This document shows, piece after piece, positions 32,566 to 57,386 of a DNA stretch of 60,125 bases. The notes beneath the pieces were generated by a model. That model did not search any database, had not been told where the DNA came from, and saw only the letters and a program-made list of their open reading frames with translations. Numbering within the stretch: position 1 is the first letter of the stretch; each line of letters begins with the position of its first letter. Made by a program: the position numbers and the translations under genes. The DNA is from a virus, in the IMG/VR virus record IMGVR_UViG_3300032245_000758, positions 1 through 60,125 of that record. One strand, written 5' to 3'.

Positions 32566-33207
32566 ATGACTATAATTGGAATATCAGGATATGCTCGTAG
32601 TGGCAAAGATCTTTTTACATCTGTTGCACAAAAGATTCTAAAAGAACACAACATTAAATCGGAAAAGTTTGCGCTTGCTTATGAACTCAAAAACGATTTA
32701 AAGTCTTTAATTAAAAATAAAGTAGGTATTGATGTATTTACAGATGATACCCAAGAGAAATCTATAATCAGACCACTGTTGGTTGCTTATGGAGATGTAA
32801 TGCGAAAGACCAGTGAAGGTAAATACTGGACTGGTAAAATAGAAAATAGAATTGCTAATTCAAAAGCAAATGTAGTGTTTATAACAGACATTCGATATGA
32901 TGTATATCCAGAGGATGAATGTACTTGGTTACAAAACAAACAATGTGGAAAATTAATTCATATAACTAAATTTAAACAAGGACCTGTACCAACAGGCAAA
33001 AGATTTAGTAAAAATAAGATCGTTAAGATCTATGATGCAGCTCCCAATGATCACGAACTATTAAACAATCCAAAAGTAAAAGCAAAAGCAGATTGTGCTT
33101 TTGAATGGGAGGATTGTAGTGATAAACTTAATGGAACTTCGTTGGAAGATCATCCGTATATTAGAGAAAAAGTAATCGAAGCTTTAAAAGCAATTAACGT
33201 AATTTAA
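32566..33207 (+). CDS. Deoxynucleoside monophosphate kinase-like P-loop kinase (T4 gp1-like)
   Basis: A 213-residue kinase with a P-loop GYARSGKD (7-14), a helical lid and an internal VVFITDIRYDVYPED (Walker-B-like/substrate site). Phage dNMP kinases of the gp1 type use this fold to phosphorylate dNMPs for dNTP pools, complementing NrdAB and the dUTPase. AAA-type or CoaE-like kinases are alternatives. It starts 1 nt after the clamp-loader gene. Its last 14 nt overlap the convergent gene at 33194, and its terminator lies inside that gene. Confidence 0.7.
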   Translation: MTIIGISGYARSGKDLFTSVAQKILKEHNIKSEKFALAYELKNDLKSLIKNKVGIDVFTDDTQEKSIIRPLLVAYGDVMRKTSEGKYWTGKIENRIANSKANVVFITDIRYDVYPEDECTWLQNKQCGKLIHITKFKQGPVPTGKRFSKNKIVKIYDAAPNDHELLNNPKVKAKADCAFEWEDCSDKLNGTSLEDHPYIREKVIEALKAINVI

Positions 33208-33475
33208 TTGTCTTTATTATATGACTACCGCCGTATGAGAAAGTTATTTCACTATCGGCGGTTTTTGTTTTAAAGTAGTCGGCTAACTCAGAAGCATGTG
33301 AAGACACAAAATTTATATATAATGTGTTACATTCCTCTTGCTTCTGAGTTTTTCTTTGTTTTTGACAACTACAAATTTTACTTAATCCGGCTAAACATTC
33401 TCTTAATCTATCGATTGAAGATACATTGTCATTTCCTATTAACTGAATGAGAGATTGATAACTTCCTATAATCAT
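33194..33475 (-). CDS. Unknown 93-residue protein, last gene of the leftward cluster
   Basis: No family is recognised. The protein is soluble-looking with a CSCQKQRKTQKQEEC segment, a Cys/Lys/Gln-rich turn that might bind metal. Its ATG overlaps the stop of the preceding membrane-protein gene (4 nt), so it belongs to the same operon. Its 3' end overlaps the convergent dNMP kinase gene, and it spans the kinase terminator hairpin. Confidence 0.55.
   Translation of the reverse strand: MIIGSYQSLIQLIGNDNVSSIDRLRECLAGLSKICSCQKQRKTQKQEECNTLYINFVSSHASELADYFKTKTADSEITFSYGGSHIIKTIKLR
33227..33266 (+). terminator. Terminator of the clamp-loader/dNMP-kinase transcript, inside a convergent gene
   Basis: Stem ACCGCCG/CGGCGGT (33227-33233 with 33256-33262), a 22-nt partly self-paired loop, then TTTT. 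It works on the + strand while its sequence codes for the end of the 93-residue protein on the other strand. Confidence 0.6.
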
Positions 33476-33849
33476 AACAATTTTCTTATAATCAAATAAA
33501 GTGTTAATGAATAAATATAATTTATTGGTAATAATAATAAAGATGTTAATTGATTATAATTCGATATATAAGTTAATAAATTTACTCCAATTAAAGTTGA
33601 CCAAAAACATAGACAGATAGGACAACTTAATAATTTGGTTAGATATCCTGGATATTGTTCATATAAAAAATTTGGATAACTACACATAACGTCTACTTCT
33701 AATTTATATTTTTCGAATTCATAAATCTTAAGTATGGATCTTAGATTGAATAATTTGGCAATTGTATTAACAATATCACTTTCAAACCAAACTACCATCA
33801 TGAAAGTGATGTAAAATACAACAGATATATTAAGATCGGTTAAGTTCAT
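33472..33849 (-). CDS. Small membrane protein with CPxCxxFW motif (DUF1360-like)
   Basis: The 125-residue protein has about three hydrophobic segments (near residues 8-22, 70-90 and 97-120) and a LLSCPICLCFWSTL motif. Small membrane proteins with a membrane-embedded C-P/x-x-C-x-x-F-W motif (DUF1360 type) occur in phages and bacteria with unknown function. It overlaps its neighbours by 4 nt at each end. In a glycan operon it could hold a transferase complex at the membrane, but that is inference. Confidence 0.6.
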   Translation of the reverse strand: MNLTDLNISVVFYITFMMVVWFESDIVNTIAKLFNLRSILKIYEFEKYKLEVDVMCSYPNFLYEQYPGYLTKLLSCPICLCFWSTLIGVNLLTYISNYNQLTSLLLLPINYIYSLTLYLIIRKLL

Positions 33850-35048
33850 ATTAGTTTATTTTTGTACCAGTTATCGTTAATATTTACTAAATTAGTATTG
33901 TAATTGTTTAACTTATTAATTTTAAGTTTAAATATGTCAAACTCTAATTCTCCTACAATGCCACTGTCTTCTAACATTAATTGTAACATATTAAAGAACT
34001 CAAAACTTTGATTATTTAATTTTACAGCATCAAATTCGACGATAATGTCATTTGTTTTTTGATCTTCGTATCTTTTTAGTTTCTTGGTTAGATCAAACTT
34101 TGTATTTTTTTGTTCAACTGATATATAACGGTCATATGATACATCGGTATAGATAGAATCGCACCATGGTTCCAATAACATCAATTTATATTCATCGCAA
34201 TTGCGTACTACAAATCCAACATTATATCTGTTTGGAACAATAGGTTTCATTGTATCATTGTGTTTAACAAAATGTCCCCATTTACGAATGAAGTTTCTCG
34301 CACTACGATTGTTTTGTTCCAACCATTCATTGCTTTCTTTGCCTACGGTAGTTAAAGTGGGATTATATCTACTTCCTCTACAGGTCATATGATATACACA
34401 TCCTTCCCATGTTTGTACAAACTTATATCCTTTTAATAGGAATCGGTTAAAGATATCACTGTCTTCTTTGCTTTGAGGAGCATAAAGATCATCGTGACCA
34501 CCAATTGATTGGAAATCACTCTTGTAAAGAGCCCAAGGCGCAAAGATTCCTTCTGTGGTTTTATCTTTTCTGGTCAAACGGGTATCATTGAACCATTTCA
34601 ATAATCCAGCTTCATTAAACTCTTCTGGCTCTGTGCCAAATGCTTGTACGATTTTCTCTGGACCTGGAGGATGTAGAGGTGGTTCAATGCGAGTTAGACT
34701 GACGATTGTGCCTGGTTGAATATACTTCTCTACATATTTATCGAAGTTAGGACATGCGTACATATCAGCGTGGTAGATCATTACCACATCGTTGGTTGCA
34801 ACTTCGTTTACAAGACGATCATATAGAATTGTGTGGCCCAATCGGGTTGGGCCGTCGTTGCGGATGAATTTGAAGTGTGGATCTTTTTGAGCTGTTTCTT
34901 TACACCATTCAAGTGTACCGTCATTACTAAAGTCGTCTGCAACACAGATTTCATGTTCTTTATGACTTAGGTTTTTACGAATAGCTTCGTAACTCCATTT
35001 AAGATATTTTAGATTGTTTCTGCTTGGTTGGATAAAACTAATTTTCAT
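33846..35048 (-). CDS. GT2-family glycosyltransferase with C-terminal extension
   Basis: The 400-residue enzyme has a GT-A domain in its first 270 residues: an ISFIQPSRN start, the nucleotide-sugar site EICVADDFSNDGTLEW (33-48), the DxD-like MIYHADMYACPNF and a YAPQSKEDSDIFNRFLLKG acceptor segment with a catalytic-base-type ED. The last 130 residues are an added domain without a recognisable motif. Stop and start overlap the next gene by 4 nt. Confidence 0.8.
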   Translation of the reverse strand: MKISFIQPSRNNLKYLKWSYEAIRKNLSHKEHEICVADDFSNDGTLEWCKETAQKDPHFKFIRNDGPTRLGHTILYDRLVNEVATNDVVMIYHADMYACPNFDKYVEKYIQPGTIVSLTRIEPPLHPPGPEKIVQAFGTEPEEFNEAGLLKWFNDTRLTRKDKTTEGIFAPWALYKSDFQSIGGHDDLYAPQSKEDSDIFNRFLLKGYKFVQTWEGCVYHMTCRGSRYNPTLTTVGKESNEWLEQNNRSARNFIRKWGHFVKHNDTMKPIVPNRYNVGFVVRNCDEYKLMLLEPWCDSIYTDVSYDRYISVEQKNTKFDLTKKLKRYEDQKTNDIIVEFDAVKLNNQSFEFFNMLQLMLEDSGIVGELEFDIFKLKINKLNNYNTNLVNINDNWYKNKLI

Positions 35049-35067
35049 GATAATATATATTTACTTT

Positions 35068-35826
35068 TTACGTGTACAAATAATTATAAGTTCGTTCCAT
35101 CCAATAACTAAAATTTCTATCATTGGGTGGTATAGCATTAAAATGATATACCCATCCGTTATTCAAAAAATGAAGTTCGTCGGTAAACCAACTATGATTG
35201 GGTATATGAAGAAGACTTTTTCTAAACAGATCTTGTAAATTGTAACATTCTGATAGATAGTTGATTTCAAACTTATTTTGTTGAATCAAATAGTTTATGA
35301 TGGTTTGATCTGTACCAGCTTTAATTTCTTTGGTAAGAGTATTTATTGTATCTATATTTTGTAAATAAAAACTCTTTATGGTATCGTAAATGTGTTTGAC
35401 ATTCTTATTACCAATAACAAATCCGCCATTTACATATTTCCACGTTGGAACAATGTCTTCGCTGGGAAACAGACGTTTCCACTCTCTTATACTTCTATTT
35501 GTCCATTCATAACAACCATTATTTAATACGGCTGAGAATTTATTATCGGTTTCGTTAAAGAAGTTTGGGCAATTTGGATGCACAATCGTATCAGCGTCAA
35601 TCATTAACACTTGATCATAATCTATGTTATTATGTTCTAATATATCTAGAACCCACCATCTTTGTAATGTAATCTTGAATACAGATGGATCCATAATAGG
35701 ATCGTTCCATTCGATTAACTTAGCATTATTTTTATCACACCAATGTTTCCAACTTTTGATACTATAATGGTACGGATTACTTCGTCCATTTTTTAAATCT
35801 ATATTTGGAACGAATACTACATTCAT
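35068..35826 (-). CDS. GT34/GT8-like glycosyltransferase
   Basis: The 252-residue GT-A enzyme has SIKSWKHWCDKNNAKLIEW near residue 23, the metal/nucleotide-sugar DxD in DQVLMIDADTIVHPNCPNFF (about 72-91), and YVNGGFVIGNK followed by a GTDQTIINYL helix. This is the galactosyltransferase GMA12/MNN10-like pattern. It has two divergent paralogues in this block, at 39239 and 38584, so local duplication is likely. It ends 20 nt before the next gene. Confidence 0.75.
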   Translation of the reverse strand: MNVVFVPNIDLKNGRSNPYHYSIKSWKHWCDKNNAKLIEWNDPIMDPSVFKITLQRWWVLDILEHNNIDYDQVLMIDADTIVHPNCPNFFNETDNKFSAVLNNGCYEWTNRSIREWKRLFPSEDIVPTWKYVNGGFVIGNKNVKHIYDTIKSFYLQNIDTINTLTKEIKAGTDQTIINYLIQQNKFEINYLSECYNLQDLFRKSLLHIPNHSWFTDELHFLNNGWVYHFNAIPPNDRNFSYWMERTYNYLYT

Positions 35827-35827
35827 A

Positions 35828-36676
35828 TTATTTTTTATCAGAAACAGCTGATTTAGACTTTTCCCAATCTTTGTTTTTTCTTATTGATAAATTTCTATCC
35901 CAAGCTGATTTTAAAACAACTGGCTCTATATCGTTGTTTTCAAATGTTTTGATGAATGCATTGATATCTTTAGGAAAACAAGTACCGCCAAATCCAAAAT
36001 CACCGTCGTGACCAGGCACTTGATAGTGACTAATACCAATTCTACCATCAGACATAACTCCGCCTAGGATAGAATCCCAATTTAATCCCATTTTATTTAT
36101 TAAGAGATACATTTCGTTGAAGAAAGAAACTTTTGTTGCAAAGAAACAATTTGCAAAGTACTTTACAAATTCAGATTCGTTGCTAGTCATTACGTGACAT
36201 TTTACTCCTGGGAATCGTTCTTCGTATATGTTCTGTACAACCGATACTCCGTTATCAACAGTGCCACCAACGATATTTCTACTTGGGGTGATAAAATCGA
36301 TACTTGCTGTACGAGCAGTTAGAAATTCGGGAGAATGTATAATTTTTAGTGGATTGAATTTCTTACACAGACTTTCTGTGGTTCCAATAGGAACAGTAGA
36401 TTTTATAACAAAGATGGTACTTGGATTGTATGTTTCGGTAATGACTGTATTGAAAAAGTCGGTTATATAAGAAAGATCGCAGTCAAGACTATCTTTAAAC
36501 ATAGGTGTGGGTAAACACACAAAAACTACATCTTGTTTTATAACTTCATTAAATGTATGTGTACTTTTTGCTGGATTTACATCATATATCATTACGTCAT
36601 GATAATGATTCAATCCTCTTGAAATTGCTCCTCCGACAAAACCATTTCCAACGATTCCTATTTTAAATTTGTTCAT
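35828..36676 (-). CDS. UDP-sugar 6-dehydrogenase (UGDH-like), C-terminally short
   Basis: Oxidises a nucleotide hexose to its uronic acid with NAD. The Rossmann motif is IGIVGNGFVGGA (6-17); KSTVPIGTT, a PEFLTARTA glutamate site and the catalytic cysteine motif GFGGTCFPKDI (about 229-239) are all present. At 282 residues it ends soon after the central helix. The C-terminal domain that holds the UDP-sugar in the usual 390-450 residue enzymes is largely missing. It overlaps its upstream neighbour by 14 nt. It would supply a uronic acid for the transferases here, if the short form is active. Confidence 0.78.
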   Translation of the reverse strand: MNKFKIGIVGNGFVGGAISRGLNHYHDVMIYDVNPAKSTHTFNEVIKQDVVFVCLPTPMFKDSLDCDLSYITDFFNTVITETYNPSTIFVIKSTVPIGTTESLCKKFNPLKIIHSPEFLTARTASIDFITPSRNIVGGTVDNGVSVVQNIYEERFPGVKCHVMTSNESEFVKYFANCFFATKVSFFNEMYLLINKMGLNWDSILGGVMSDGRIGISHYQVPGHDGDFGFGGTCFPKDINAFIKTFENNDIEPVVLKSAWDRNLSIRKNKDWEKSKSAVSDKK

Positions 36677-37604
36677 AAATTATATTCCAATTTTGCAACC
36701 AGACATTCTCTGCGTAGAATATCTTATAATTATCCTTTGCCGTTTGTGAACAATAATTATAAAATTCATTGTCGTCTCGTATCCTAACTGAGAGACTATT
36801 TGCCAATTCCACATCTCCAATTTCGACTGACAATTGTGGATGCAATGTCTGTTGTGTATCTAGTCCTTTATATCCAATACATGGTATACCCAAATAAGCA
36901 CAATTGAGAGCGAATGTACCAGCCGCATGTGTACGCATCAAGTGTATACCCACATTAAAATTGGCAAGTGCTTGTATCCATTCATTCCATATCATATATG
37001 GCAAGTGATGCAAGCTAGGAAATTGATCTTCGTTTTCTATCTTGCGACCCATACTAGGAATAAAGATGGGTTTATTAAAGTTTTGCGCTACAAAGTAACT
37101 GTCTATACCACCATACCAGCTACAGAAATTACCGCCTATGATAGGCATTTGGTTGTTTTGACGGCGTACATCTTTAATAGTATCTTCAATCATTAAAGAT
37201 TGTAGATTAAATGTGGGTTTCTTAAATATACCTTTGAAGTAGGGAATATCACTCTTATTGTGAACCAACAAGAAATCCATCTCACTTAAAAAGTTAAAAT
37301 AATTAACTTGATCTGCGTATTTATAGTCTTGATAATACCAAGCTGGTCCTTCTTGCATTACTGCTAATTTTTTACCAATAGATTTAGAAATATTTAATAT
37401 CTGGTTTGTATTAATTATCTCTAATTTCTTTGGTAGGATTATAATAGCTAGATCATATGTAGGTACTTTATTTTTACAGATATAATCAAAAGATAAATGA
37501 TCTGCGTTTAATGAAATTTGCCAAGCAAATTCGGTACGACAGTTTAGGAAGTTACGAGGTATCTTGCCAATATGACCATTTTGACTGATAAAACAAATAT
37601 TCAT
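36663..37604 (-). CDS. GT-B-like glycosyltransferase
   Basis: The 313-residue protein starts MNICFISQNGHIGKIPRNF (Rossmann entry). Its second half reads as the nucleotide-sugar domain: VGIHLMRTHAAGTFALNCA with YLGIPCIGYKG, the usual G-x-P-C-I/V turn of family-1/4 type donor sites. It overlaps the neighbour on each side (14 and 4 nt). The donor and acceptor are unknown. Confidence 0.65.
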   Translation of the reverse strand: MNICFISQNGHIGKIPRNFLNCRTEFAWQISLNADHLSFDYICKNKVPTYDLAIIILPKKLEIINTNQILNISKSIGKKLAVMQEGPAWYYQDYKYADQVNYFNFLSEMDFLLVHNKSDIPYFKGIFKKPTFNLQSLMIEDTIKDVRRQNNQMPIIGGNFCSWYGGIDSYFVAQNFNKPIFIPSMGRKIENEDQFPSLHHLPYMIWNEWIQALANFNVGIHLMRTHAAGTFALNCAYLGIPCIGYKGLDTQQTLHPQLSVEIGDVELANSLSVRIRDDNEFYNYCSQTAKDNYKIFYAENVWLQNWNIIYEQI

Positions 37605-38587
37605 AGGTTTTTCTTAAAATCTTCGTAAGTATAAAATCTTCCGCTATTATTAAAAAGAGTGGTTAGATTGTGTTGAGACATTTGTTTGAATACTTGCCAC
37701 CAGTCTCCTTTTTCTTTTCCACAGAATCCTCTTGGGTTATTTTCATTATCAATATACATGCGTTTATTAGGATGTCTACGAGCATGTACTTTTAAAACAT
37801 TCTTAAATATTATTTGTATATACTTATCACCTAATATCTTTTGGGCCATTAAAGATAGACTTTCATCATCATTGTGTATAAAACAAGGTGGTATATTTAC
37901 TCCACTTTTAATCAAATCCGATGTTAATACCAAACACGATCCGTCTAATTTTGGATAGTTGATGGTTTGAATGTTAATTTCTTGTATTTCAGAGTTAATC
38001 GTGTTCATTTGATCAATGGACATACACGACTTAGCTTGATTGATATTATCAACATCTTTATCGTTATAAATGTGGTTTATAAATTTAGGATGAACCGTAA
38101 CATCCCAACTATTATCCCACATTTTTCTATCAGCAAAACATGCTATAAATCTATATATCCCTTGATTTCTTACTACCGGCGTTAATTGTTCTAATGATAT
38201 AATAGCTTCTTTGGGAAACAAACTATCCGTTTCACCCCAAATTACATAATCAACTTTTTCGCAATATTTTGTGTTGAATTCTCTTCTATAATTTGTTTGG
38301 GTATAAAACTTATCATCGTCATTTACTATTTTATAATGGACATTTGGCAATTCTTTCAGTCTAAACAGTTCGTTCTCAAACCTATCAGTTAAATCATCTT
38401 TGGATGTTTTTGATGTATCTACTTTTTCAAAGAATTGTGATGTGTTGAATACAAAATCCAAATATACGTTTTCTTTGTTGTCAACCGTGGACAAAAGATT
38501 TAACAATCCACTGATATAATCACTGAACATTTCAATTTCATAAAACATCACGTGGATGCCAATTGCGTATTTATAATTTATATTCAT
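37601..38587 (-). CDS. GT-A-like glycosyltransferase
   Basis: The 328-residue protein has a nucleotide-sugar site with KVDYVIWGETDSLFPKEAI near residue 112 (ETD in the DxD position), then an internal segment DGSCLVLTSDLIKSGVNIPP with a downstream IHNDDESLSL acid pair, as in GT2-type enzymes. N-terminal similarity to GT2 is weak. Starts and stops overlap its neighbours by 4 nt. It is one of the more divergent transferases in the cluster. Confidence 0.6.
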   Translation of the reverse strand: MNINYKYAIGIHVMFYEIEMFSDYISGLLNLLSTVDNKENVYLDFVFNTSQFFEKVDTSKTSKDDLTDRFENELFRLKELPNVHYKIVNDDDKFYTQTNYRREFNTKYCEKVDYVIWGETDSLFPKEAIISLEQLTPVVRNQGIYRFIACFADRKMWDNSWDVTVHPKFINHIYNDKDVDNINQAKSCMSIDQMNTINSEIQEINIQTINYPKLDGSCLVLTSDLIKSGVNIPPCFIHNDDESLSLMAQKILGDKYIQIIFKNVLKVHARRHPNKRMYIDNENNPRGFCGKEKGDWWQVFKQMSQHNLTTLFNNSGRFYTYEDFKKNL

Positions 38588-39246
38588 AAAAATGTAGAGG
38601 CGATTGACATCAAATCTGGATTTAATTCGAAATTAAAAATTTTGCCGAACTTTGAAAGATTGGAGTCAATTGGTATCTCTTTTCTATTCATATCTATCAT
38701 ATTATATACATACGGTAATTTATTATATTCCCCATCGAAGAAAAAATTCTGTGGAATAAATTTAAGATCTAATTTGTTAATCAAGTTTTGATAGTTCTCT
38801 TCTAAGAAATTTAGAATCTGATCGAAGATTTGTTCATGTGATTTGTTAACAACAAATACACTTAAATCAAAGAATCTCGAAAAGTCTACTTTTTTATTAT
38901 TAAACACGTGCTCTTGATATAATTCTATATTGGTTAACAAGTAACTAAAATCAGAATCCCATTCTGCAAATGTGAGTTTATTGTCGCTTAAATCAAAAAT
39001 ATTCTCTGTGTTCTTATTTACAAGCGTTGTGTCTCGTACTAAACAGATGTTGTCGAAACTCACATCACTATTTTTCAATAATTTGAATATATAGAAAATT
39101 TGATTTATTCTATCGAATGTTGGATTAACAATATCGGTTAAACAGATCAATTTTAAACTGTGTAATTCACAATACTTTTTCCAAGAGTCATATGACAACT
39201 GATTTAGTTGTTTTCCGGATTGATATAGAATAACGAAATTATTCAT
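38584..39246 (-). CDS. Divergent GT-A-like paralogue
   Basis: The 220-residue protein shares its layout with the 39239 and 35068 products: a SYDSWKKYCELHSLKLICL entry (about 19-37), a DNICLVRDTTLVNKN site where the DxD is RDT, and FVVNKSHEQIFDQIL. The loss of one acidic residue suggests a changed metal use or loss of activity. It overlaps both neighbours. Confidence 0.55.
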   Translation of the reverse strand: MNNFVILYQSGKQLNQLSYDSWKKYCELHSLKLICLTDIVNPTFDRINQIFYIFKLLKNSDVSFDNICLVRDTTLVNKNTENIFDLSDNKLTFAEWDSDFSYLLTNIELYQEHVFNNKKVDFSRFFDLSVFVVNKSHEQIFDQILNFLEENYQNLINKLDLKFIPQNFFFDGEYNKLPYVYNMIDMNRKEIPIDSNLSKFGKIFNFELNPDLMSIASTFL

Positions 39247-41595: not shown

Positions 41596-41596
41596 T

Positions 41597-43034: not shown

Positions 43035-43055
43035 AACAAGTTTAGATTATTTTAA

Positions 43056-43841: not shown

Positions 43842-43853
43842 TAAAAATACATA

Positions 43854-44621: not shown

Positions 44622-44623
44622 AA

Positions 44624-45550: not shown

Positions 45551-45551
45551 G

Positions 45552-46184: not shown

Positions 46185-46185
46185 A

Positions 46186-50409: not shown

Positions 50410-51416
50410 TCAACTGTGATGCCTTTCATATTTTTAAATAGATCGTAGTAATGTAGAACTAATTTATATAAATCGTATACTTCCATATATTTACGTCTCA
50501 TATTTTCTACATAAAATGATTGTAAGTTATTGAAGTCTGAAATAACATAATCTATCTTTTCGTTGAGATCTGAAAAATCATGTTTACATGGCACATAGGT
50601 TTCGTATGGAACATACAAGTTGGGAACAGTTTCCAAATGAGACATGTCAGGCTTTATTAAAACAGATCCAAACATCGTGGCTTCTAAATCTCTGGGTGCT
50701 ATTTCTCCAAATCCAAATGGCGCTAATATGATTTTAGAATTTGACATTCTATTATAATATTCATCAATAGGTATTCGAATTCCATTTTCCAATTTAGTAA
50801 CATTAAATTTGTCAGACAAATTATCAAATACATTTTGTCTAAATCTATTATAATAGATTGCTTGATTCAACCCATGTTCAAATACATCTTTATGTGGATA
50901 CATGAACATAGCAGATACATCAAAATGTTTATTGTTATTGTAATTTAACCACTGCGGTTGTATAGTAGATAACCAATTAAATCCAGATAGTTTGATTCTA
51001 TCCATGATATCTAAATTAGGTATACTATATTCGCCTACACCCCAGTACAAACGACCATTAGCGTATTTATTAATATATTCACTTCTATTTGTATATAATG
51101 TTGGTTTTAATAAATAAATCGCTTTTGACTGTTCAAATACTTCATAGGAACCTATCAATGTAGCAGCATCTTGACCATCAAATAGAAAATATGGTTCCTT
51201 GACAGTTTCTAAAAATTTCAAACCAGATGATACTGATTCTGATAAAGACAATTTTTTATTGACGAAACTTGCATGTCCGACAAAAGCGAAATCCGCCGGA
51301 CCATCTGTTACAAATTCTATACCAATTTCTTTGAATATATGTCTTGCAAATAGAAGAGGTCGAAATGTAGTTTCATTTCGATGTTTATCAAGTTCATATA
51401 TTTTTATTTTAATCAT
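50406..51416 (-). CDS. GT-B-like / exostosin-type glycosyltransferase
   Basis: The 336-residue protein has a C-terminal donor-type segment ILAPFGFGEIAPRDLEATMF followed by GSVLIKPDMSHL. This is the E-x-x-x-R-x-x-E-A pattern seen in exostosin and GT-B enzymes. The N-terminus carries FRPLLFARHIFKEIGIEF and a FDGQDAATL segment. The start is preceded by a 36-nt gap, a rare loose joint in the operon. Confidence 0.68.
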   Translation of the reverse strand: MIKIKIYELDKHRNETTFRPLLFARHIFKEIGIEFVTDGPADFAFVGHASFVNKKLSLSESVSSGLKFLETVKEPYFLFDGQDAATLIGSYEVFEQSKAIYLLKPTLYTNRSEYINKYANGRLYWGVGEYSIPNLDIMDRIKLSGFNWLSTIQPQWLNYNNNKHFDVSAMFMYPHKDVFEHGLNQAIYYNRFRQNVFDNLSDKFNVTKLENGIRIPIDEYYNRMSNSKIILAPFGFGEIAPRDLEATMFGSVLIKPDMSHLETVPNLYVPYETYVPCKHDFSDLNEKIDYVISDFNNLQSFYVENMRRKYMEVYDLYKLVLHYYDLFKNMKGITVE

Positions 51417-51452: not shown

Positions 51453-52013
51453 TTATACTTCTATACAAATAAGTCCTTCATAATCAAATAATTGACGGGT
51501 AAAAGTAGATGCTGGTGGGTGACCAATATACCGGACTACTTTAATCTTTTCGTATGTGATTAGATCATTAATTGCTTGTTTTATTTCTGGAAATGCCCCG
51601 TAGTCATCATAAATAAAGTACTTTTTGTCGTTCGACTTAAATTGTAATGATCGAATTGTATCATTGATAACCGCATCATATGTGTGTTCGGCATCAATTA
51701 AAAAAACATCTCCATAGTCCAATGGCAATGTTGTATTATATACGTCTTGTGCGTAAAATCTAACATTTGGTCTATCACTATTAAAATTTTGTGCCAACTC
51801 AACGCTTTCTAAATTAAATCCTACTACTTCTTTAAAAAGATAACTTAGAATTTTTGTTGTATATCCAATATTACTTCCAATTTCTAGACATGTTTTATTT
51901 TTGAATTCTTCTTTATTAAAGAATTCAAACAATTCACGTTTAAACTTATGGCTTGTAGTAGTTTTATGCTGGAATTTGTCAGGTATATTTTTTAAAAGTT
52001 CGTCGATAGTCAT
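51453..52013 (-). CDS. Class I SAM-dependent methyltransferase
   Basis: The 186-residue enzyme shows the SAM-binding motif TCLEIGSNIGYTT (about 40-52), VVGFNLESVELA and GDVFLIDAEHTYDAVINDT, then YFIYDDYG. The D-A-E-H-x-Y-D stretch is typical of FkbM/TylF-like sugar methyltransferases. It lies in the glycan operon and probably methylates the sugar chain. It is distinct from the 45552 enzyme. Confidence 0.75.
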   Translation of the reverse strand: MTIDELLKNIPDKFQHKTTTSHKFKRELFEFFNKEEFKNKTCLEIGSNIGYTTKILSYLFKEVVGFNLESVELAQNFNSDRPNVRFYAQDVYNTTLPLDYGDVFLIDAEHTYDAVINDTIRSLQFKSNDKKYFIYDDYGAFPEIKQAINDLITYEKIKVVRYIGHPPASTFTRQLFDYEGLICIEV

Positions 52014-52014: not shown

Positions 52015-52662
52015 TTATTTAACGGAATATCCTTGGTTTTCTTCCTGAGTAAACATTTTATTATAGTTTAAATTTGTCTGTCTCTGTTTTTCTATAGTCT
52101 TTTCGTGAATAATAGCAATGTCTTTTTGTGGAGGAATAAATACATATGATTTATATCCCTCTACTTTTTCGTGTAATCTACGCTCGTAACGAATGTGTGA
52201 TTTATTACGATATAATCTGGATTGATAGTCTGGAAAATTAATCATACCATCATATAACCTCCAACCCCACGCTTGTACGTCTTCATTTGTCACACCGAGA
52301 AAGTAATTTAGTCTTGGTAGCCAAATTACTTCATTGTTTTCATTTGATTGTAATATAGCATCTATATTTTCAATCAATATATCTGTAGGCAATTCATCGC
52401 CATCTAATTGAAATATCCAGTCACCTTTACACAAACCGATCCCATAGTTTTTGTGTGCGCCATAGTTTTTATCTAGTTTGTGTTGTTGGAAATTTACCGA
52501 GTTTTTAAACTTTTGTATAATTTCAACAGTGGTTGGATTATCCGAATAATCATCAAGAAGAACAATTTCATGGTTATGCTTTTTGTAATTAGACAACTTA
52601 GACAGTAAATTTTCTAAACTATCTGTCTCGTTGTGACTTGTTACTAAGTATGACAAAAACAT
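52015..52662 (-). CDS. GT2-family glycosyltransferase (WaaE-like)
   Basis: The 215-residue enzyme begins LSYLVTSHNETDSLENLL, has EIVLLDDYSDNPT, NYGAHKNYGIGLCKGDWIFQ, and the metal motif LDGDELP (about 87-93). The line SRLYRNKSHIRYERRLHEKV with the RLHE end is characteristic of WaaE/KdtX-type LPS core glucosyltransferases. 2 nt separate it from the methyltransferase. Confidence 0.82.
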   Translation of the reverse strand: MFLSYLVTSHNETDSLENLLSKLSNYKKHNHEIVLLDDYSDNPTTVEIIQKFKNSVNFQQHKLDKNYGAHKNYGIGLCKGDWIFQLDGDELPTDILIENIDAILQSNENNEVIWLPRLNYFLGVTNEDVQAWGWRLYDGMINFPDYQSRLYRNKSHIRYERRLHEKVEGYKSYVFIPPQKDIAIIHEKTIEKQRQTNLNYNKMFTQEENQGYSVK

Positions 52663-52663: not shown

Positions 52664-54004
52664 TTAACTCACTTTCAATTTTGGCAATGATAATTTGGTT
52701 TCAAATGTTTGGTTGGTATTAACTGGTTTTAATTTAGGTAATACGAATTGATTTTCTACGGCAAACTGAGGAACATATTGTTCTAAAATTGACCACAATT
52801 TTTTGTCCATCTCAGTCATACTGAATTTTTCTGTGTTTTCTTTACGTAGTAATTCTGCATTTTTTGTAAACTTATCACTCTTACGAGCAAAATACACTTG
52901 TTTCATTCTATCTTCAGCGAGTGAATATGAAACTTTAAACCACTTACTCTCTTTAATAATCCATTGATTAACTGATTTTTTATCTACTTCTACCAAATTT
53001 CCAGGCAATAGATTAGCTAAACTTGGATTTAGATAGTCTAAATGTCCGCTCCAATTAGATACCAAAAGAGGTTTGCCACTTAGTGTAGCTAGTAGAAGAG
53101 GATGTCCATAACCTTCACCATGTGTAAATGAAATGTGCGCAATGACTTTTTCATGATTCAATAATGCATTCATTTCTGGCTCGGTTAATTCCCCGTGTAA
53201 CAAATATACATTAGGAGCATTTTCACCAATTTCTTCACGTACTTTTTTAATCTTAGATAGAGTTTCAAATCTATCTACGGTTGAGTATGATGCTCCGCCG
53301 CTCTTTATAATCAAACATGGTCGATCATTTTGAGATTGATTCTTAAACGCATTACAAAACGTTTTTATTAAATTGCCAATGTCTTTACGATCATTATATA
53401 ACCCACCATGAGTCCATTGACCGATAAATAGAAATGCTGATGATTCTTTGATATTCGATAGAGCGCTTTCTACAGATTCAAGTTTTTCATCTGTTTTCTT
53501 AAATACATTAGTATCTGCTCCCCAGAAACAAACTTCAATTGGCTTTTCAACTTGGACCGGAACTTGTTGACCATTTTCAAGTTGTTTTGCTAATTTGATT
53601 TCGTTGAATGTTTTCTTCACGTGATTAGATAACCCAATCGTAAGATTCATTCTATTTACACCTTCTACCCAGCTACCAGGTGGAATTGTTGTTTCAATAC
53701 CAGCTGTCATACCAATATTGTATTTACCAACCGGCTGAAATTCTTCTGGAATGGTTAGTTGAATAAATATATCAGGCTGTTTATCCAACGCGCCATTGAT
53801 GATTTTTGAGGCTAGTGTTCTGTCTTCTGGATCAGTCAACTCTTCTAGAAATCGTTTGCTTTGACAATTACCCCATCTAGCTGGTGCAATTTTAACATCG
53901 TATTTATCATAACGAATGACGCTTTTTGCTACTGCTGTAGCCCAATCGCCATATCCGCTGCGGTTAAATACCGGACCTGAAATTAAACATAGTGGTTTGC
54001 TCAT
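52664..54004 (-). CDS. GT4-like glycosyltransferase
   Basis: The 446-residue GT-B enzyme begins with PLCLISGPVFNRSGYGDWAT (glycine-rich acceptor domain). It has PAGIETT-like GMTAGIETTIPPGSW, a SNHVKKTF segment, and the donor region VIAHISFTHGEGYGHPLLLA with TLSGKPLLVSNWSGHLDYL. The HGEGYGxPLLEA-like motif is that of family 4. Codon use (many CTA/GGT choices) is closer to the replication genes than the AT-rich middle of the cluster. Confidence 0.78.
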   Translation of the reverse strand: MSKPLCLISGPVFNRSGYGDWATAVAKSVIRYDKYDVKIAPARWGNCQSKRFLEELTDPEDRTLASKIINGALDKQPDIFIQLTIPEEFQPVGKYNIGMTAGIETTIPPGSWVEGVNRMNLTIGLSNHVKKTFNEIKLAKQLENGQQVPVQVEKPIEVCFWGADTNVFKKTDEKLESVESALSNIKESSAFLFIGQWTHGGLYNDRKDIGNLIKTFCNAFKNQSQNDRPCLIIKSGGASYSTVDRFETLSKIKKVREEIGENAPNVYLLHGELTEPEMNALLNHEKVIAHISFTHGEGYGHPLLLATLSGKPLLVSNWSGHLDYLNPSLANLLPGNLVEVDKKSVNQWIIKESKWFKVSYSLAEDRMKQVYFARKSDKFTKNAELLRKENTEKFSMTEMDKKLWSILEQYVPQFAVENQFVLPKLKPVNTNQTFETKLSLPKLKVS

Positions 54005-54005: not shown

Positions 54006-54725
54006 TTATTGATTAAATTGTTTTGTATCTCTTTCTTGTACTAATTGTGTATATTTTTTTGTTGGTGTGGGTACTCCCCCTAAACTATTGTATAATGCTT
54101 CCATATGACTCATTTGAACTTGAGCTACTTCTGCTTTTTCTCCTTTTTTAATATCGGTACTACCAAATCCACCTTCGCCTCGATTTGTAGAATCTAGTTC
54201 ATTTACCAATTCAAATTTTACATTTTCAACTTTTGTTACCTTGAGTTGACATACTTTATCACCTTTTTTATAAAGTTTTTCAATATTTGGTTTACCCGAT
54301 ACATACGTGTATAATGGAGAACCATCATTGGATAGATGTGGGTATAGATTATAATCTTCTGGTTGCCAAATATACTTAAAACGAAGCAATACTTCGCCAC
54401 GATAATCAGCATCAATCAGTCCAATACTATTAGCTAGTACCAAATTGTATTTACTAACACTACTACGAGGAAATGCTAGAATATCATAATCCAAATCAGT
54501 ATAACCAAAACTACTAAACTCTCGTTCTTTTTGTACAGCTAGTTTAAGATTGGTTTTATATTGAATATAGTCAATACGATTGTATGTACCATTCTCATAT
54601 AGTTCACCAACAATCTCTGGATCACTCGTAACAACTACATCGAAACCAGTAGCACGATCAGTACCTTTCTTTGGTAGATTTTCTACATCTTGATAATCTT
54701 CGTTTTTTAATACTTGAATCTTCAT
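54006..54725 (-). CDS. dut: dUTPase (trimeric, Dut family)
   Basis: All five dUTPase motifs are visible in the 239-residue protein: motif 1 GTDRATGFDVV, motif 2 PRSSVSKYN, motif 3 IGLIDADYRGEV, motif 4 KKGDKVCQL and motif 5 RGEGGFGSTD. It hydrolyses dUTP to dUMP, protecting DNA and feeding dTMP synthesis, as expected beside NrdAB. It is longer than the usual 150 residues, with inserts after motif 1 and between motifs 3 and 4. It sits between two glycosyltransferases, overlapping the upstream one by 4 nt, an odd place for a nucleotide enzyme. Confidence 0.88.
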   Translation of the reverse strand: MKIQVLKNEDYQDVENLPKKGTDRATGFDVVVTSDPEIVGELYENGTYNRIDYIQYKTNLKLAVQKEREFSSFGYTDLDYDILAFPRSSVSKYNLVLANSIGLIDADYRGEVLLRFKYIWQPEDYNLYPHLSNDGSPLYTYVSGKPNIEKLYKKGDKVCQLKVTKVENVKFELVNELDSTNRGEGGFGSTDIKKGEKAEVAQVQMSHMEALYNSLGGVPTPTKKYTQLVQERDTKQFNQ

Positions 54726-55687
54726 TGAATCGTTTGTTTAATAGCTTCTAGATTTACAGTATGCAAATCAAACCCTAACTTATCATTAGGTAATGATTTA
54801 ATATCATAACCAACTTCGGTGAAGATGTCAAATGGTTTAACTGGGGTAAAATTAGTTAGTGTGTAATCCATTGCTTTAATAAATTGATCACACATGTTTA
54901 AACTATTAATACCGCCTTCATTCATTGCCCATCTACGACCTTCTAATCCGTATTGTTCGCGTTTTTCACTGCCAACTAAGTACCAATAAGCAATAGCATC
55001 TGCAATATCTGTATAGTTGGTTAGATCATCCATGATATATGGAGTGGGAGGACTTCCTTGTAGATTTTGAACTTTGGTCCAGATTGGTTTAGCCCATACA
55101 CCATGTTTCTTATAACGACCTGTACTATTAGTACCAAATTCCAGATTAAATTCAACGGGTTTTCCTTCATCTGTAACGATTCCTAGTTGATCTTGTAAAC
55201 CACCTGTAACTGTAGCAATAACTGGAGTGCCGCACATAATAGCTTCAGCAATACTCAAACCAAAACCTTCATTAGAACTGACATTCGCAACCACATCAGC
55301 TAAATTATAGAATGATACCATTTCTTCTGGACTTCTACGAGATTCGTCCAATACTACTTTGTATTCTGGACAAATAGCTTGTACAGTAGCTACTAGATCT
55401 GTCCCTGCTTCACATACTTTATCTGTATGCATAATCAATGCACATTTCTTAGCTTGTTCTTGATCAATAGAAGAACAGAATGATTTAAATGCCATGATTA
55501 AATTGGCTGGATGTTTACGATGTGCATTTCTGCTGTTAAATGCTACAATAAAATTATATTCCCCATCTCCCAATAGATTTTTCTTTAACTTATTAACTGA
55601 AGAATCACCTTTTGGTAATGGTTTAAATTCATTGTTATTAATACCGTGAGGTACATAGTGTAATAGATGTTTTCCTTTTACTGGCAT
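54722..55687 (-). CDS. GT4 glycosyltransferase, donor (C-terminal) half
   Basis: The 321-residue protein lacks the usual N-terminal acceptor domain. It starts with a YVPHGINNNEF line and carries the donor-site motif SSNEGFGLSIAEAIMCGTPVI. It corresponds to the C-terminal part of a normal GT4 enzyme; the N-terminal half is the 55689 gene. The start ATG is 1 nt after that gene's stop, and AAGGAG lies 10 nt upstream inside it, so it has its own ribosome binding site. Confidence 0.75.
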   Translation of the reverse strand: MPVKGKHLLHYVPHGINNNEFKPLPKGDSSVNKLKKNLLGDGEYNFIVAFNSRNAHRKHPANLIMAFKSFCSSIDQEQAKKCALIMHTDKVCEAGTDLVATVQAICPEYKVVLDESRRSPEEMVSFYNLADVVANVSSNEGFGLSIAEAIMCGTPVIATVTGGLQDQLGIVTDEGKPVEFNLEFGTNSTGRYKKHGVWAKPIWTKVQNLQGSPPTPYIMDDLTNYTDIADAIAYWYLVGSEKREQYGLEGRRWAMNEGGINSLNMCDQFIKAMDYTLTNFTPVKPFDIFTEVGYDIKSLPNDKLGFDLHTVNLEAIKQTIQ

Positions 55688-55688: not shown

Positions 55689-56240
55689 TTAAATGTTCTC
55701 CTTAATTAAATTTCCGTTAGTGTCAAAGTCTCCATAGATACTGGTACAGTTTTCTGGTCCAAGTACCCATTTATTGATATTATCCGTTTGTTTACTAATA
55801 GCAAACAAAGCATCACAACTCTTGTAGAATGGTTTATTCCACATTGGATATGGTAGATCATCCCAAATATCAAGATATGTTAGAGGAATCTTGCTTCGGA
55901 TTTGATGTTCGATGTTATACAACCATCCCCAGAAACGAGGATCTGTGAAGTGCATAATTGCGTCGGGTTTTTCTATAGCCATGATCTGATAAAGAATTTC
56001 TTCATCTCCATAACCATCGACAGGATATAATCTCAGATAGTTATCATTTCTACCATTGAGTTTATCGCATGCGTCTTTCATGTCTACAACTTTACCTGCT
56101 TCTGGGTGTTTAATAGCACCAGCAATTTGAACCCAATCATAATGATGAAGAGTGCCTAATACGAGTTCTCGACTCATTGTAGCTACACCACTATGCATTC
56201 TTAGATCATCACTTAATAATAATATCTTTTTCTTTTTCAT
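55689..56240 (-). CDS. GT4 glycosyltransferase, acceptor (N-terminal) half
   Basis: The 183-residue protein is a single Rossmann half: ILLLSDDLRMHSGVATMSRE (acceptor glycine loop), DAIMHFTDPRFWGW and PLTYLDIWDDLPYP, then DALFAISKQTDN. It ends at the linker where a GT-B protein would enter its donor half, which is supplied by the next gene in another frame. It overlaps the RHH gene by 4 nt. The pair may work as a two-subunit enzyme. Confidence 0.72.
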   Translation of the reverse strand: MKKKKILLLSDDLRMHSGVATMSRELVLGTLHHYDWVQIAGAIKHPEAGKVVDMKDACDKLNGRNDNYLRLYPVDGYGDEEILYQIMAIEKPDAIMHFTDPRFWGWLYNIEHQIRSKIPLTYLDIWDDLPYPMWNKPFYKSCDALFAISKQTDNINKWVLGPENCTSIYGDFDTNGNLIKENI

Positions 56241-56452
56241 TTAGATTCCTTTGATAATGAAAATGGAGCATTAAAACTTAACTTTTGAACGATACTTTCA
56301 CTAATTTCAGATTGAAATTTAATATCAGATAGATATTTTTCTAAACACTTATTTGCAAAGTCTTGAAAAGATATCTTACCTCTTATATTCAGTTCTTTAA
56401 ACTGATTATATAATTCTTGATTAAGTTTTACTGTTGTAACAAATTGATCCAT
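56237..56452 (-). CDS. Ribbon-helix-helix-like regulator (predicted)
   Basis: The 71-residue protein begins FVTTVKLNQELYNQFKELN (a beta strand, then the first helix), then GKISFQDFANKCLEKYL (second helix), the order of Arc/CopG-type ribbon-helix-helix DNA-binding proteins. The last 25 residues are polar. It is the first gene downstream of a near-palindrome at 56455-56484 and is coupled to the glycosyltransferase genes by a 4-nt overlap, so autoregulation of the leftward operon is a fair inference. Confidence 0.6.
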   Translation of the reverse strand: MDQFVTTVKLNQELYNQFKELNIRGKISFQDFANKCLEKYLSDIKFQSEISESIVQKLSFNAPFSLSKESK

Positions 56453-56454
56453 AA

Positions 56455-56484
56455 CATATGTACATATATAGATATATACATATG
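56455..56484 (-). promoter_or_regulatory. Candidate operator of the RHH protein
   Basis: An inverted repeat CATATGTA (56455-56462) and TACATATG (56477-56484) flanks an AT-rich, partly symmetric 14-nt centre. It ends 2 nt from the start codon of the RHH gene. RHH proteins often bind such repeats next to their own start. Simple AT symmetry is the alternative. Confidence 0.4.
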
Positions 56485-56495
56485 TGAGATATTAA

Positions 56496-57386
56496 TTATA
56501 ATTTAGTAGCTTTGCCATCACATGTTTTTTTATAATGAGTACAATACTTGCAGTTCTTTTTACCATTACCTGGCACTTTTATATATTGATTTGACTCATT
56601 ATAACTTCCATCCGGAGTAAATCCATAATCAAGAAACTCAACAAATGACTTGATCGATTCTTTGATAATAACCGGACCAGCTGCTGGTTTAAATATTTGA
56701 ATTCTGCTTTGGGGGAAAGATGCCTTTTCGTATAGTTTTCTTTTAACAATAAAGAACTCAACTTCAATATTATTGAGAGGAACATTAAACTTTTTACTAT
56801 AAACGCTCTTGTATAGATGTAATTGTGCAAGTTTACTTACATCTTCTTTCATATAACTGTTCCATCCACTACTAGATGTCTTGAAGTCGATGATACGATA
56901 ATATTCTTTATTTCTTTCTTTTAGAACGATATCAATAAACCCAACAAATTCTACGTTATTCTTAATTGGAATTTCCAATGGGATTTCGATGCCTACCAAT
57001 TCATAGTCTTTGGTTGGGAAATATTTCAATCTATTGGCCGATTTACAGAAAGTGTCGATAATGTCATTTCCATCAAAAATGAAGTCGGTAAATTCCTCTT
57101 CTTTTACATCTTTTACTTTTTTGATTTCTTCGTTGAATTTATCAAGAAACAACTTCTTTACATCCAAAGAATCAGCAACACTTACGCCTTCTTTATAGAG
57201 AGAGGTAAGGTATGTTTGAAATGCATGATGAATTGCTGTTCCAAACGTGGTATTGATGTTATCATCTTTAACTCGTAGATTTTTAACATAATCCAAATAC
57301 CATTTATGTGGGCATTTCAAAAATGTAGAATATTGGCTAAAGCTGACTCGTTTCTTTTTTATTTCTTTAATTTCTTCAATTGACAT
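56496..57386 (-). CDS. Cas4/AddB-like PD-(D/E)XK nuclease with Fe-S cysteines
   Basis: The 296-residue nuclease has the RecB-family set His53 (GTAIHHAF), Asp152 (FVGFIDIV) and Asp167-x-Lys169 (IIDFKTSS). Cys25 (KCPHKWY) and Cys279, Cys282 and Cys289 (CKYCTHYKKTC) match the four-cysteine iron-sulphur cluster of Cas4, AddB and Dna2-type nucleases. Such enzymes trim 5' ends at breaks and could work with UvsX. No CRISPR array or other Cas gene is near. Its promoter lies 6 nt from the ATG. It precedes the RHH gene by 43 nt and probably shares its transcript. Confidence 0.8.
   Translation of the reverse strand: MSIEEIKEIKKKRVSFSQYSTFLKCPHKWYLDYVKNLRVKDDNINTTFGTAIHHAFQTYLTSLYKEGVSVADSLDVKKLFLDKFNEEIKKVKDVKEEEFTDFIFDGNDIIDTFCKSANRLKYFPTKDYELVGIEIPLEIPIKNNVEFVGFIDIVLKERNKEYYRIIDFKTSSSGWNSYMKEDVSKLAQLHLYKSVYSKKFNVPLNNIEVEFFIVKRKLYEKASFPQSRIQIFKPAAGPVIIKESIKSFVEFLDYGFTPDGSYNESNQYIKVPGNGKKNCKYCTHYKKTCDGKATKL

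What the first reader, a model, noticed from the sequence alone, without database searches (positions are those of the whole stretch)
33194..57386. Thirty-gene leftward glycan-building cluster in a T4-like phage
From 57386 down to 33194 every gene is on the minus strand. Most join by 4-nt overlaps or gaps of 1-3 nt, and a single clear promoter stands at the head. The content covers nucleotide-sugar synthesis (UGDH-like, tandem NTP-transferase), sugar-phosphate enzymes (HAD, class II aldolase, GDPD-like), about fifteen transferases of GT2, GT4, GT34-like, GT61 and CgeB types, and two methyltransferases. No flippase, polymerase or ligase is seen. I infer a soluble, stepwise pathway that decorates virion proteins, DNA or host surface sugars. 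I do not know of a characterised T4-like locus with this gene set. The regulator, nuclease and dUTPase at its head tie it to the phage programme.
Basis: partly seen in the sequence, partly recalled or inferred. Interest (0 to 1): 0.85.

Follow-up and report, generated by a model that had tools for sequence, protein, structure and literature searches.

The report
Swappable sugar-building gene island in phages
A large T4-like phage carries a 24-kb block of soluble sugar-making and sugar-attaching enzymes at a fixed genome site whose middle part is swapped between related phages; such clusters are known in marine cyanophages, but the swapping and the loss of the membrane parts seen in bacterial relatives help narrow down what they do.

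Summary
In detail: 30 intact minus-strand ORFs fill 33194-57386. The block is a hypervariable glycan island at a fixed site in a lineage of large T4-like phages, between a dNMP-kinase-like gene and DNA polymerase B. Across 24 related records its ends (g30-g24; g3-g1) are largely conserved and its middle is replaced; in 20 measurable islands it runs from 9.7 to 24.2 kb. An 11-kb piece of the window (g8-g20) is 84-99.6% identical in DNA (median 96%) to two relatives whose other genes are about 80% identical, with edges at gene junctions: a recent cassette exchange. The cassette's kinase, aldolase and tandem nucleotidyltransferase recur in cyanophages and in bacterial loci. The bacterial kinase is fused to a membrane domain (49 of 51), the viral one is not (0 of 23), and no island ORF is multi-pass. 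Genes are under purifying selection. Most likely role: a soluble pathway that builds a short oligosaccharide in the cytoplasm and attaches it to virion protein. The acceptor is not shown: host surface glycan is a close rival, DNA a weaker one. Precedents exist (P-SSM2, S-SM2, S-SSM7, Bellamy), so this is a new variant of a known kind.

The parts
33194..57386 (-). whole glycan island, 30 ORFs (g1 at the low end to g30 at the high end)
   Evidence: same site in 23 related records
38584..49726 (-). exchanged cassette g8-g20 (about 11.1 kb), shared with IMG/VR records G002 and G026; edges at the g7/g8 and g20/g21 junctions
   Evidence: per-gene identity; sliding identity 0.78 to 0.95 at about 49.7 kb and 0.945 to 0.83 at about 38.5 kb
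33194..33475 (-). g1, conserved tail-end gene, no family at E<=0.001
   Evidence: 24 of 24 islands
33472..33849 (-). g2, small protein with 1-3 predicted membrane segments in the 23 relatives; window copy falls below the cut-off
   Evidence: 24 of 24 islands
33846..35048 (-). g3, GT2 glycosyltransferase, conserved
   Evidence: Pfam PF00535; (22 of 24)
35068..35826 (-). g4, GT-A-like family with DAD motif (same family as g8, g9)
   Evidence: motif only
35828..36676 (-). g5, nucleotide-sugar dehydrogenase-like; GGTCFPKD motif present, C-terminal UDP-binding part absent
   Evidence: 19 of 24 islands
36663..37604 (-). g6, GT-B glycosyltransferase by predicted fold
   Evidence: (pLDDT 91.4), (best Z 23.3, rmsd 3.3, 289 aligned); 21 of 24 islands
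37601..38587 (-). g7, GT-A (SpsA-like) glycosyltransferase by predicted fold
   Evidence: pLDDT 85.0; best Z 16.4, rmsd 3.4, 215 aligned; 19 of 24 islands
38584..39246 (-). g8, member of the g4/g9 family
39239..40057 (-). g9, member of the g4 family, DAS in place of DAD
40033..41595 (-). g10, tandem nucleotidyltransferase (two NTP-transferase domains)
   Evidence: relatives in 35 viral and 69 bacterial loci
   Evidence: weak homology to a protein of the bacterial loci
42070..42366 (-). g12, small HAD-type phosphatase related to EcbF/BcbF (below NCBIfam's cut-off; PHROG calls the family phosphoheptose isomerase)
42354..43034 (-). g13, class II aldolase
43056..45550 (-). g14, g15, g16, unassigned; presumed transferases
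   Evidence: no family
45552..46184 (-). g17, TylF-type methyltransferase
46186..47652 (-). g18, unassigned soluble N-terminal domain fused to a phosphoribulokinase/uridine-kinase domain
47613..48839 (-). g19, GT61
48836..49726 (-). g20, Glyco_trans_1_2 glycosyltransferase
49723..50409 (-). g21, GT2
50406..51416 (-). g22, unassigned
51453..52013 (-). g23, methyltransferase-like, below Pfam cut-off
52015..52662 (-). g24, GT2, conserved
   Evidence: 22 of 24
52664..54004 (-). g25, glycosyltransferase (PHROG), conserved anchor
   Evidence: phrog_2170; (24 of 24)
54006..54725 (-). g26, dUTPase
54722..55687 (-). g27, C-terminal half of a split GT4-type enzyme
55689..56240 (-). g28, N-terminal half of the same split enzyme
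   Evidence: fused to the g27 part in 7 relatives
56237..56452 (-). g29, small protein, no family
56496..57386 (-). g30, PD-(D/E)XK nuclease, first gene of the block
57387..57437 (.). 51-nt divergent gap with a leftward TTGAC element present in 17 of 19 islands; a rightward 12/12 consensus promoter spans 57380-57407
32566..33207 (+). dNMP-kinase-like gene, convergent flank, overlaps g1 by 14 nt
57438..58175 (+). conserved divergent flanking gene (weak cupin hit)
59206..60125 (+). start of DNA polymerase B, cut by the end of the record

Best explanation
The block is a glycan-building island of a large T4-like phage, held at a fixed site between a dNMP-kinase-like gene and DNA polymerase B. A conserved set (split GT4 g28+g27, g25, g24, g6, g3, usually with g5 and g7) most likely builds and attaches the inner part of a glycan. 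The replaceable middle supplies the outer sugars. In this window the middle is an 11-kb cassette (g8-g20) recently exchanged with another phage lineage; its kinase, class II aldolase, HAD phosphatase, tandem nucleotidyltransferase and g11 are proposed to make one unusual nucleotide-activated sugar or polyol. The enzymes are soluble, so the glycan is made in the cytoplasm, most likely on virion protein during assembly. Different phages would then carry different glycan coats. Shown here: island, fixed site, conserved ends, exchange, purifying selection, lack of multi-pass membrane proteins, glycosyltransferase folds of g6 and g7. Inferred: core versus outer roles, the sugar product, the virion as acceptor, the benefit.
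For: Fixed site with conserved ends and changing middle in 24 records: 557 ORFs fall into 109 families, 10 in 20 or more islands and 48 in one only. Exchange: 13 cassette genes have median 96.0% DNA and 88.6% fourfold-site identity to G002, against 80.3% and 53.3% for 31 other genes; no homologue of g10-g19 was found in G006 or G024. dN/dS to G002 between 0.015 and 0.267 in 29 of 30 genes. No ORF with four or more membrane segments among 537 island ORFs, none with two among 464 ORFs around g10 in 35 viral loci (two of them in G002 and G026), against 138 of 714 with four or more in 69 bacterial loci. The bacterial kinase ORF has four or more membrane segments in 49 of 51, the viral one has none in 23 of 23. 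GtrA in 33 of 69 bacterial and 0 of 35 viral loci. Predicted folds of g6 and g7 are GT-B and GT-A.
Against: No acceptor was identified. The island lies in the replication region, not beside known tail or capsid genes, which would also suit DNA modification. Soluble transferases can also work on host lipid A-core at the membrane face (recalled), so solubility does not exclude the host surface; g2 is a small membrane protein. No chemistry of the cassette is shown; the ketose or polyol reading rests on family names. g9 lacks a canonical DxD. The record is incomplete and the host unknown. Synonymous sites are near saturation outside the cassette, so dN/dS there is approximate. Only 21 of the 35 viral g10 proteins are distinct at 95% identity.
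Confidence: 0.47

Rival explanations
1. The island remodels the host surface during infection (LPS core or other envelope glycan) to block superinfection or grazing; soluble transferases work at the inner face of the membrane and host machinery exports the product.
For: This is the reading offered for the cyanophage and pelagimyophage clusters (PMC2984593 and PMC7029224, passages read). The cassette's kinase, aldolase and NTP-transferase have homologues in bacterial loci rich in polytopic membrane proteins, presumably surface-glycan loci. g2 could tie enzymes to the membrane. Cassette variability would fit competition between phages.
Against: No polytopic protein in 24 islands and no GtrA in 35 viral g10 loci, whereas 55 of 69 bacterial loci have at least one polytopic ORF near g10. 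The kinase is membrane-fused in 49 of 51 bacterial loci and in 0 of 23 viral ones.
Confidence: 0.33
2. The island decorates the phage's own DNA with sugars, as in T4 or RB69.
For: It lies beside DNA polymerase B, dNMP-kinase-like, dUTPase, RNR and helicase genes. RB69 has a sugar module beside its polymerase (PMC6024577, passages read). T4 AGT is among the fold matches of g6. A 2024 paper on virus transferases that put diverse glycans on DNA is cited in PMC12619734 (title seen in its reference list).
Against: Thymidylate-synthase-family proteins were found in 3 of 12 records; the two read keep the Asn of true TS (the meaning of that residue is recalled), so no dCMP hydroxymethylase was seen. 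No QueC in 12 records. Tet/JBP and HMUDK searches found nothing, but their controls were silent too. So many variable transferases seem more than known DNA glycans need (judgement).
Confidence: 0.15
3. The cluster is non-functional filler DNA for headful packaging.
For: Raised as a possibility for the cyanophage clusters (PMC3037559, passage read). Island length varies from 9.7 to 24.2 kb.
Against: All 30 ORFs intact; dN/dS well below 1; motifs kept in many alleles, e.g. HGEGxGHP of g25 in 24 of 24 and GGxCxPKD of g5 in 18 of 19, though other crude motif tests were low.
Confidence: 0.03
4. The block is a misassembled piece of a bacterial capsule locus.
For: Lower GC (0.26-0.33) than the plus-strand part (0.31-0.37).
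Against: The same flanks and gene order recur in many metagenome records, and the head of the island recurs in Microcystis phage Mel-JY01 and Flavobacterium phage immuto.
Confidence: 0.01

Closest known systems
LPS-type gene clusters of T4-like cyanophages (S-SM2, Bellamy; P-SSM2 and S-SSM7 from the literature)
   Same: Long same-strand cluster of nucleotide-sugar enzymes and transferases in a T4-like phage; relatives of g10 (46-48% identity over 99%), g19, g13, g12 and g11 in one neighbourhood; near nrdAB in Bellamy.
   Different: Different phage lineage; different conserved end genes (g30-g24, g3-g1); no psbA in 12 records; here the exchange of a cassette is visible directly.
Microcystis phage Mel-JY01 and Flavobacterium phage vB_FspM_immuto
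   Same: Same head of the island: nuclease, GT4 (split in Mel-JY01, fused in immuto), g25 and g24 homologues, in the same order.
   Different: Shorter glycan regions with other middle genes; protein identity 41% for g25 and 35% for g24.
Bacterial loci with kinase, HAD, aldolase, tandem NTP-transferase and GT2 genes (Bacteroidota, Lysobacter, Prochlorococcus and others)
   Same: g10, g13 and the g18 kinase domain are homologous and clustered.
   Different: Bacterial loci carry GtrA (33 of 69), a membrane-fused kinase (49 of 51) and other polytopic proteins; the phage has none of these, uses a different small HAD, and its g11 is only distantly related to the bacterial counterpart.
Chlorovirus PBCV-1 capsid glycan pathway
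   Same: Works alike in outline: virus-encoded transferases make a conserved glycan core without the host's usual glycosylation organelles (PMC7826918, abstract read; variable outer sugars are recalled).
   Different: Eukaryotic virus, unrelated genes; target proven there (major capsid protein), not here.
Pelagimyophage host-recognition cluster
   Same: Hypervariable island with glycosyltransferases in T4-like aquatic phages (PMC7029224, passages read).
   Different: Lies among structural genes with tail fibres; the present island lies between dNMP kinase and PolB.

Membership tests
T4-like (Gp23-type) tailed phages | Gp23-type major capsid protein | tested here: inconclusive
   Pfam Gp23 in 1 of 12 records, the 303.6-kb relative G030 (E 5e-72); not in the window, which is probably a fragment
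T4-like (Gp23-type) tailed phages | family-B polymerase, DnaB-type helicase, NrdA/NrdB, baseplate genes | tested here: met
LPS-type clusters of T4-like cyanophages | contiguous cluster of nucleotide-sugar enzymes and transferases in a T4-like phage | tested here: met
   homologous genes in S-SM2 and Bellamy
LPS-type clusters of T4-like cyanophages | carried by a cyanophage (psbA used as marker) | tested here: inconclusive
   0 of 12 records; all may be fragments
Gtr-type seroconversion loci (gtrABC; features recalled) | GtrA flippase and polytopic Gtr transferase | tested here: not met
   no ORF with four or more membrane segments in 24 islands; GtrA 0 of 35 in viral loci around g10; no GtrA Pfam hit in g1-g30
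Wzx/Wzy or ABC polysaccharide loci (features recalled) | polytopic flippase, polymerase or transporter | tested here: not met
   by hydropathy rule
T4-type DNA glucosylation | dCMP hydroxymethylase supplying hmC | tested here: inconclusive
   3 of 12 records have a TS-family protein; the two read keep the TS-type Asn; records may be incomplete
T4-type DNA glucosylation | AGT or BGT glucosyltransferase | not tested
   families not searched by name; fold similarity of g6 to AGT is general GT-B
UDP-glucose dehydrogenase (g5) | NAD-binding and central domains with catalytic Cys motif | tested here: met
UDP-glucose dehydrogenase (g5) | C-terminal UDP-binding domain | tested here: not met
   282 aa; best stretch ends at position 298 of 413 of TIGR03026; no C-terminal Pfam domain
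Bacterial kinase-aldolase-tandem NTP-transferase loci | tandem NTP-transferase, class II aldolase and PRK-type kinase clustered | tested here: met
Bacterial kinase-aldolase-tandem NTP-transferase loci | membrane components (GtrA; membrane domain on the kinase) | tested here: not met
Moraphages (PMC12619734) | HSP70-type chaperone reported in part of the lineage | tested here: inconclusive
   0 of 12 records; marker phylogeny not run

The most novel reading that the evidence does not exclude
This is a phage glycotype-switching locus, the viral counterpart of an O-antigen locus: conserved end genes build a core glycan on the virion, and whole outer-sugar cassettes, taken from bacterial loci and stripped of their membrane parts, are swapped between phages by recombination at gene junctions, so that sister phages wear different sugar coats.
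Probability: 0.33. Interest if true: 0.8.

Novelty: new variant of a known kind. Interest (0 to 1): 0.52.

Why it matters
A 2010 comparison of cyanophage genomes left open whether such clusters work or are filler DNA (PMC3037559, passage read). The comparison here argues for function: purifying selection, a fixed site, and exchange of a whole cassette. It also narrows how they work: in the stretches examined, viral relatives of a bacterial pathway lack its membrane parts, down to the membrane domain of the kinase. If the acceptor is the virion, phages would carry interchangeable glycan coats, which would bear on host range, recognition and defence. Phages with related genes and named hosts are on record (immuto, Mel-JY01, S-SM2, Bellamy), so the question can be tested directly.

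Tried and rejected
Misassembly of a host locus: rejected by synteny. Filler DNA: disfavoured by dN/dS. Near DNA match in named phages: none for 33000-57500. T4 late promoter TATAAATA: 19 matches against 14.3 expected, 11 of 100 shuffles reach 19, so nothing learned. tRNAs: none in the window or in seven loci. psbA: 0 of 12. HSP70 as a link to moraphages: 0 of 12. First genome scan with g10 alone found no relative; the profile found 69 loci. Relation of g12 to the bacterial HAD: only 16 columns aligned, probability 3.5%. Relation of g11 to the bacterial counterpart: 88% probability over 89 columns in local mode, 59% in global mode. Sequence search of solved structures with the g7 profile: none; with the g4/g9 profile only weak GT8/glycogenin hits, best E 0.2. 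Motif regexes are my own and crude; low ones were g21 3 of 9, g27 5 of 24, g9 3 of 18. Families of g14-g16, g22 and the g18 N-part remained unsettled.

Limits: the viral scans use short patterns from one protein and find close relatives only, so 34 loci is a lower bound. Of these 34 loci, 23 records were used for the islands; 11 were left out because an anchor was missing, because they were short or distant, or because of a near duplicate. Four of the 24 islands are cut at one end. The 35 viral g10 loci include G002 and G026 and hold 21 distinct g10 proteins at 95% identity; the 69 bacterial ones hold 64. In one search one partly covered gene (16%) was dropped for G002 and the genes were treated as independent. 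Membrane segments were called by a simple hydropathy rule (19-residue mean of 1.8 or more). More distant g10 hits (32-36%) occur in islands G018 and G019 but did not join the g10 family. G handles carry no completeness value. Statements about the literature rest only, in an open-access library. The original 2005 P-SSM2 paper was not held; it is cited through. The gtr and Wzx/Wzy systems, the role of the TS Asn, lipid A-core enzymology and the 'GDPD' label are recalled.

Full report
Observation. The window is one complete IMG/VR record of 60,125 bp, probably a fragment of a phage genome. Thirty open reading frames without stops lie on the minus strand from 33194 to 57386; I number them g1 (low end) to g30 (high end). 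Of 29 junctions, 10 overlap by 4 nt and 9 have gaps of 1-2 nt; the rest are 5 longer overlaps and 5 gaps of 12-43 nt. GC skew changes sign over the block at 3-kb resolution. Pfam recognises 14 of 30 genes at E<=0.001. The block is framed by a convergent dNMP-kinase-like gene (32566-33207) and by two divergent genes (57438-58399), followed by a homing-endonuclease-like gene and DNA polymerase B. The plus-strand part holds baseplate genes, an exonuclease, a DnaB-type helicase and NrdA/NrdB. A 303.6-kb relative (G030) encodes a Gp23 capsid protein (1 of 12 records). T4-like in the broad sense is therefore fair.

Promoter. Around the 51-nt divergent gap the only 12/12 consensus site (57380-57407) points to the right. 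On the leftward strand a TTGAC element is present in 17 of 19 aligned islands, but the -10 is weak and ends a few bases from the g30 start.

Related islands. A scan with g25 found 34 viral loci, 43-87% identical. In most of these, as far as the fetched stretch reaches, the order p58172, p57438 (divergent), g30-g29-g28-g27-g26-g25-g24 recurs in whole or large part. Of 32 records searched, 26 have a match to g3 and 25 to the dNMP-kinase-like gene. I took 23 records with the island (and loci) and compared them with the window. Island length, measurable in 20 of 24, runs from 9,696 bp (G016) to 24,217 bp (G026). The window has 24,179 bp. The 557 ORFs fall into 109 families; 10 occur in 20 or more islands (g1, g2, g3, g6, g24, g25, g26, g27, g28, g30) and 48 in one only. 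g10, g12-g16 and g18-g20 occur in 3 of 24.

Cassette exchange. Against G002, the 13 genes g8-g20 have a median DNA identity of 96.0% (84.0-99.6) and fourfold-site identity of 88.6%, whereas 31 other genes have 80.3% and 53.3% (Mann-Whitney p 7.5e-7 and 3.3e-5, with genes treated as independent). G026 gives the same picture. Sliding identity jumps from 0.78 to 0.95 at the g21/g20 junction and falls from 0.945 to 0.83 at the g8/g7 junction. Within the block g12 and g13 are lower (84%), so the cassette is itself a mosaic. G006 and G024, which in most genes outside the island are as close to the window as G002 or closer, have no detected g10-g19; inside the island g4, g5 and g21-g24 are closer in G002. 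This is best read as recent transfer of about 11 kb with edges at gene borders. A second likely exchange affects gene 25217-27289, 97% identical in DNA to G006.

Selection. dN/dS between window and G002 is 0.015-0.267 in 29 of 30 genes; the value for g4 could not be computed because synonymous sites are saturated. This argues against filler DNA, a possibility left open for the cyanophage clusters (PMC3037559, passage).

The cassette pathway. g10 has two NTP-transferase domains; glycine-rich motifs and a Lys after them are invariant in both halves of the 19 aligned sequences. Relatives of g10 occur in 35 viral loci, commonly in the order g18-g13-g12-g11-g10: kinase 23 of 35, aldolase 23 of 35, small HAD 25 of 35, GT2 13 of 35, g11 25 of 35. 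The named cyanophages S-SM2 and Bellamy carry relatives of g10, g19, g13, g12 and g11 together. A profile of g10 found 69 bacterial loci. There the kinase domain is present in 51, a HAD in 51, the aldolase in 61, GtrA in 33, a GT2 in 61 and a protein resembling g11 in 53 of 69. g11 and that bacterial protein align with 88% probability over 89 columns; no library names either. The bacterial kinase ORF has four or more predicted membrane segments in 49 of 51 loci; the viral one has none in 23 of 23, being joined to another domain found in 23 viral loci and 1 bacterial locus. Family names suggest ketose or polyol phosphate chemistry ending in a nucleotide-activated product; the product is inference.

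No polytopic membrane proteins. With a simple hydropathy rule, 24 of 537 island ORFs show one or more membrane segments (23 are g2) and none shows four or more; in the 35 viral g10 loci it is 2 of 464 with one and none with two; in the bacterial loci 138 of 714 have four or more. Within 6.8 kb of g10 the bacterial figure is 113 of 584, with 55 of 69 loci having at least one. The clusters of Bellamy, S-SM2, immuto and Mel-JY01 show one single-segment hit in 75 ORFs. The window's own g2 falls below the cut-off.

Transferases without families. g6 (pLDDT 91.4) has a GT-B fold: best Z 23.3, rmsd 3.3, 289 aligned. g7 (pLDDT 85.0) has a GT-A fold: best Z 16.4, rmsd 3.4, 215 aligned. Folds do not name the acceptor: protein, teichoic-acid, small-molecule and DNA transferases appear in the lists.

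Split enzyme. g28 and g27 are two parts of one GT4-type enzyme: separate in 25 loci, fused in 7, and not decidable in 4 cut loci, of 36 examined. In L032 an endonuclease-like ORF lies between the halves.

What it does. The parts describe a soluble pathway with a conserved inner set and exchangeable outer sets. I rank the acceptor as virion protein (0.47), host surface (0.33), DNA (0.15), with filler and artefact small. Against DNA: TS-family proteins in two relatives have the TS-type Asn and QueC is absent from 12 records, but the records may be incomplete and the Tet/JBP and HMUDK searches had silent controls. Against the host surface: lack of membrane partners; but soluble transferases suffice for LPS core (recalled), and this reading is offered in the literature for similar clusters (PMC2984593, PMC7029224, passages). 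A conserved glycan core made by virus-encoded enzymes is known on chlorovirus capsids (PMC7826918, abstract). A paper on large, mostly freshwater phages lists four glycosyltransferases among core genes (PMC12619734, passages and part of one section); whether that lineage is this one was not settled.

Novelty. Glycan clusters in T4-like phages are known, and this is a further case. What differs is the lineage, the fixed anchors, directly visible cassette exchange, the lack of polytopic membrane proteins relative to bacterial kin, and the split GT4.

Noticed in passing
window 54722-56240 (g27, g28); L027, L030, L031, L033, L034, L035, L037: A GT4-type glycosyltransferase naturally split into N- and C-part genes in 25 of 36 loci and fused in 7.
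   Followed up: partly
L032:7605-8300: Endonuclease-like ORF (weak DUF559 and PvuRts1I-like hits) between the two halves of the split GT4; possible homing endonuclease.
   Followed up: partly
L023:7986-8405: ORF with a weak T4 gp19 tail-tube-like hit between the two GT4 halves.
   Followed up: no
window 58485-59231: NUMOD3/Vsr-like, probably homing endonuclease gene just before DNA polymerase B; not found in the fetched parts of G002, G026, G006 or G024 but 96-98% identical copies at this place in L006 and L010.
   Followed up: partly
window 25217-27289: 690-aa gene without a PHROG or Pfam hit, 97% identical in DNA to G006 while its neighbours are 73-93%: a second exchanged segment.
   Followed up: no
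window 54006-54725 (g26): dUTPase inside the glycan block; relatives G014-G016 and G030 carry a version only 31-34% identical at the same place.
   Followed up: no
window 57438-58175: Conserved divergent gene whose relatives begin with a signal-peptide-like stretch (my reading) and that has a weak cupin hit.
   Followed up: no
window 33472-33849 (g2): Small probable membrane protein with a CPIC stretch, in 24 of 24 islands, and apart from one single-segment ORF in G020 the only island gene with predicted membrane segments.
   Followed up: partly
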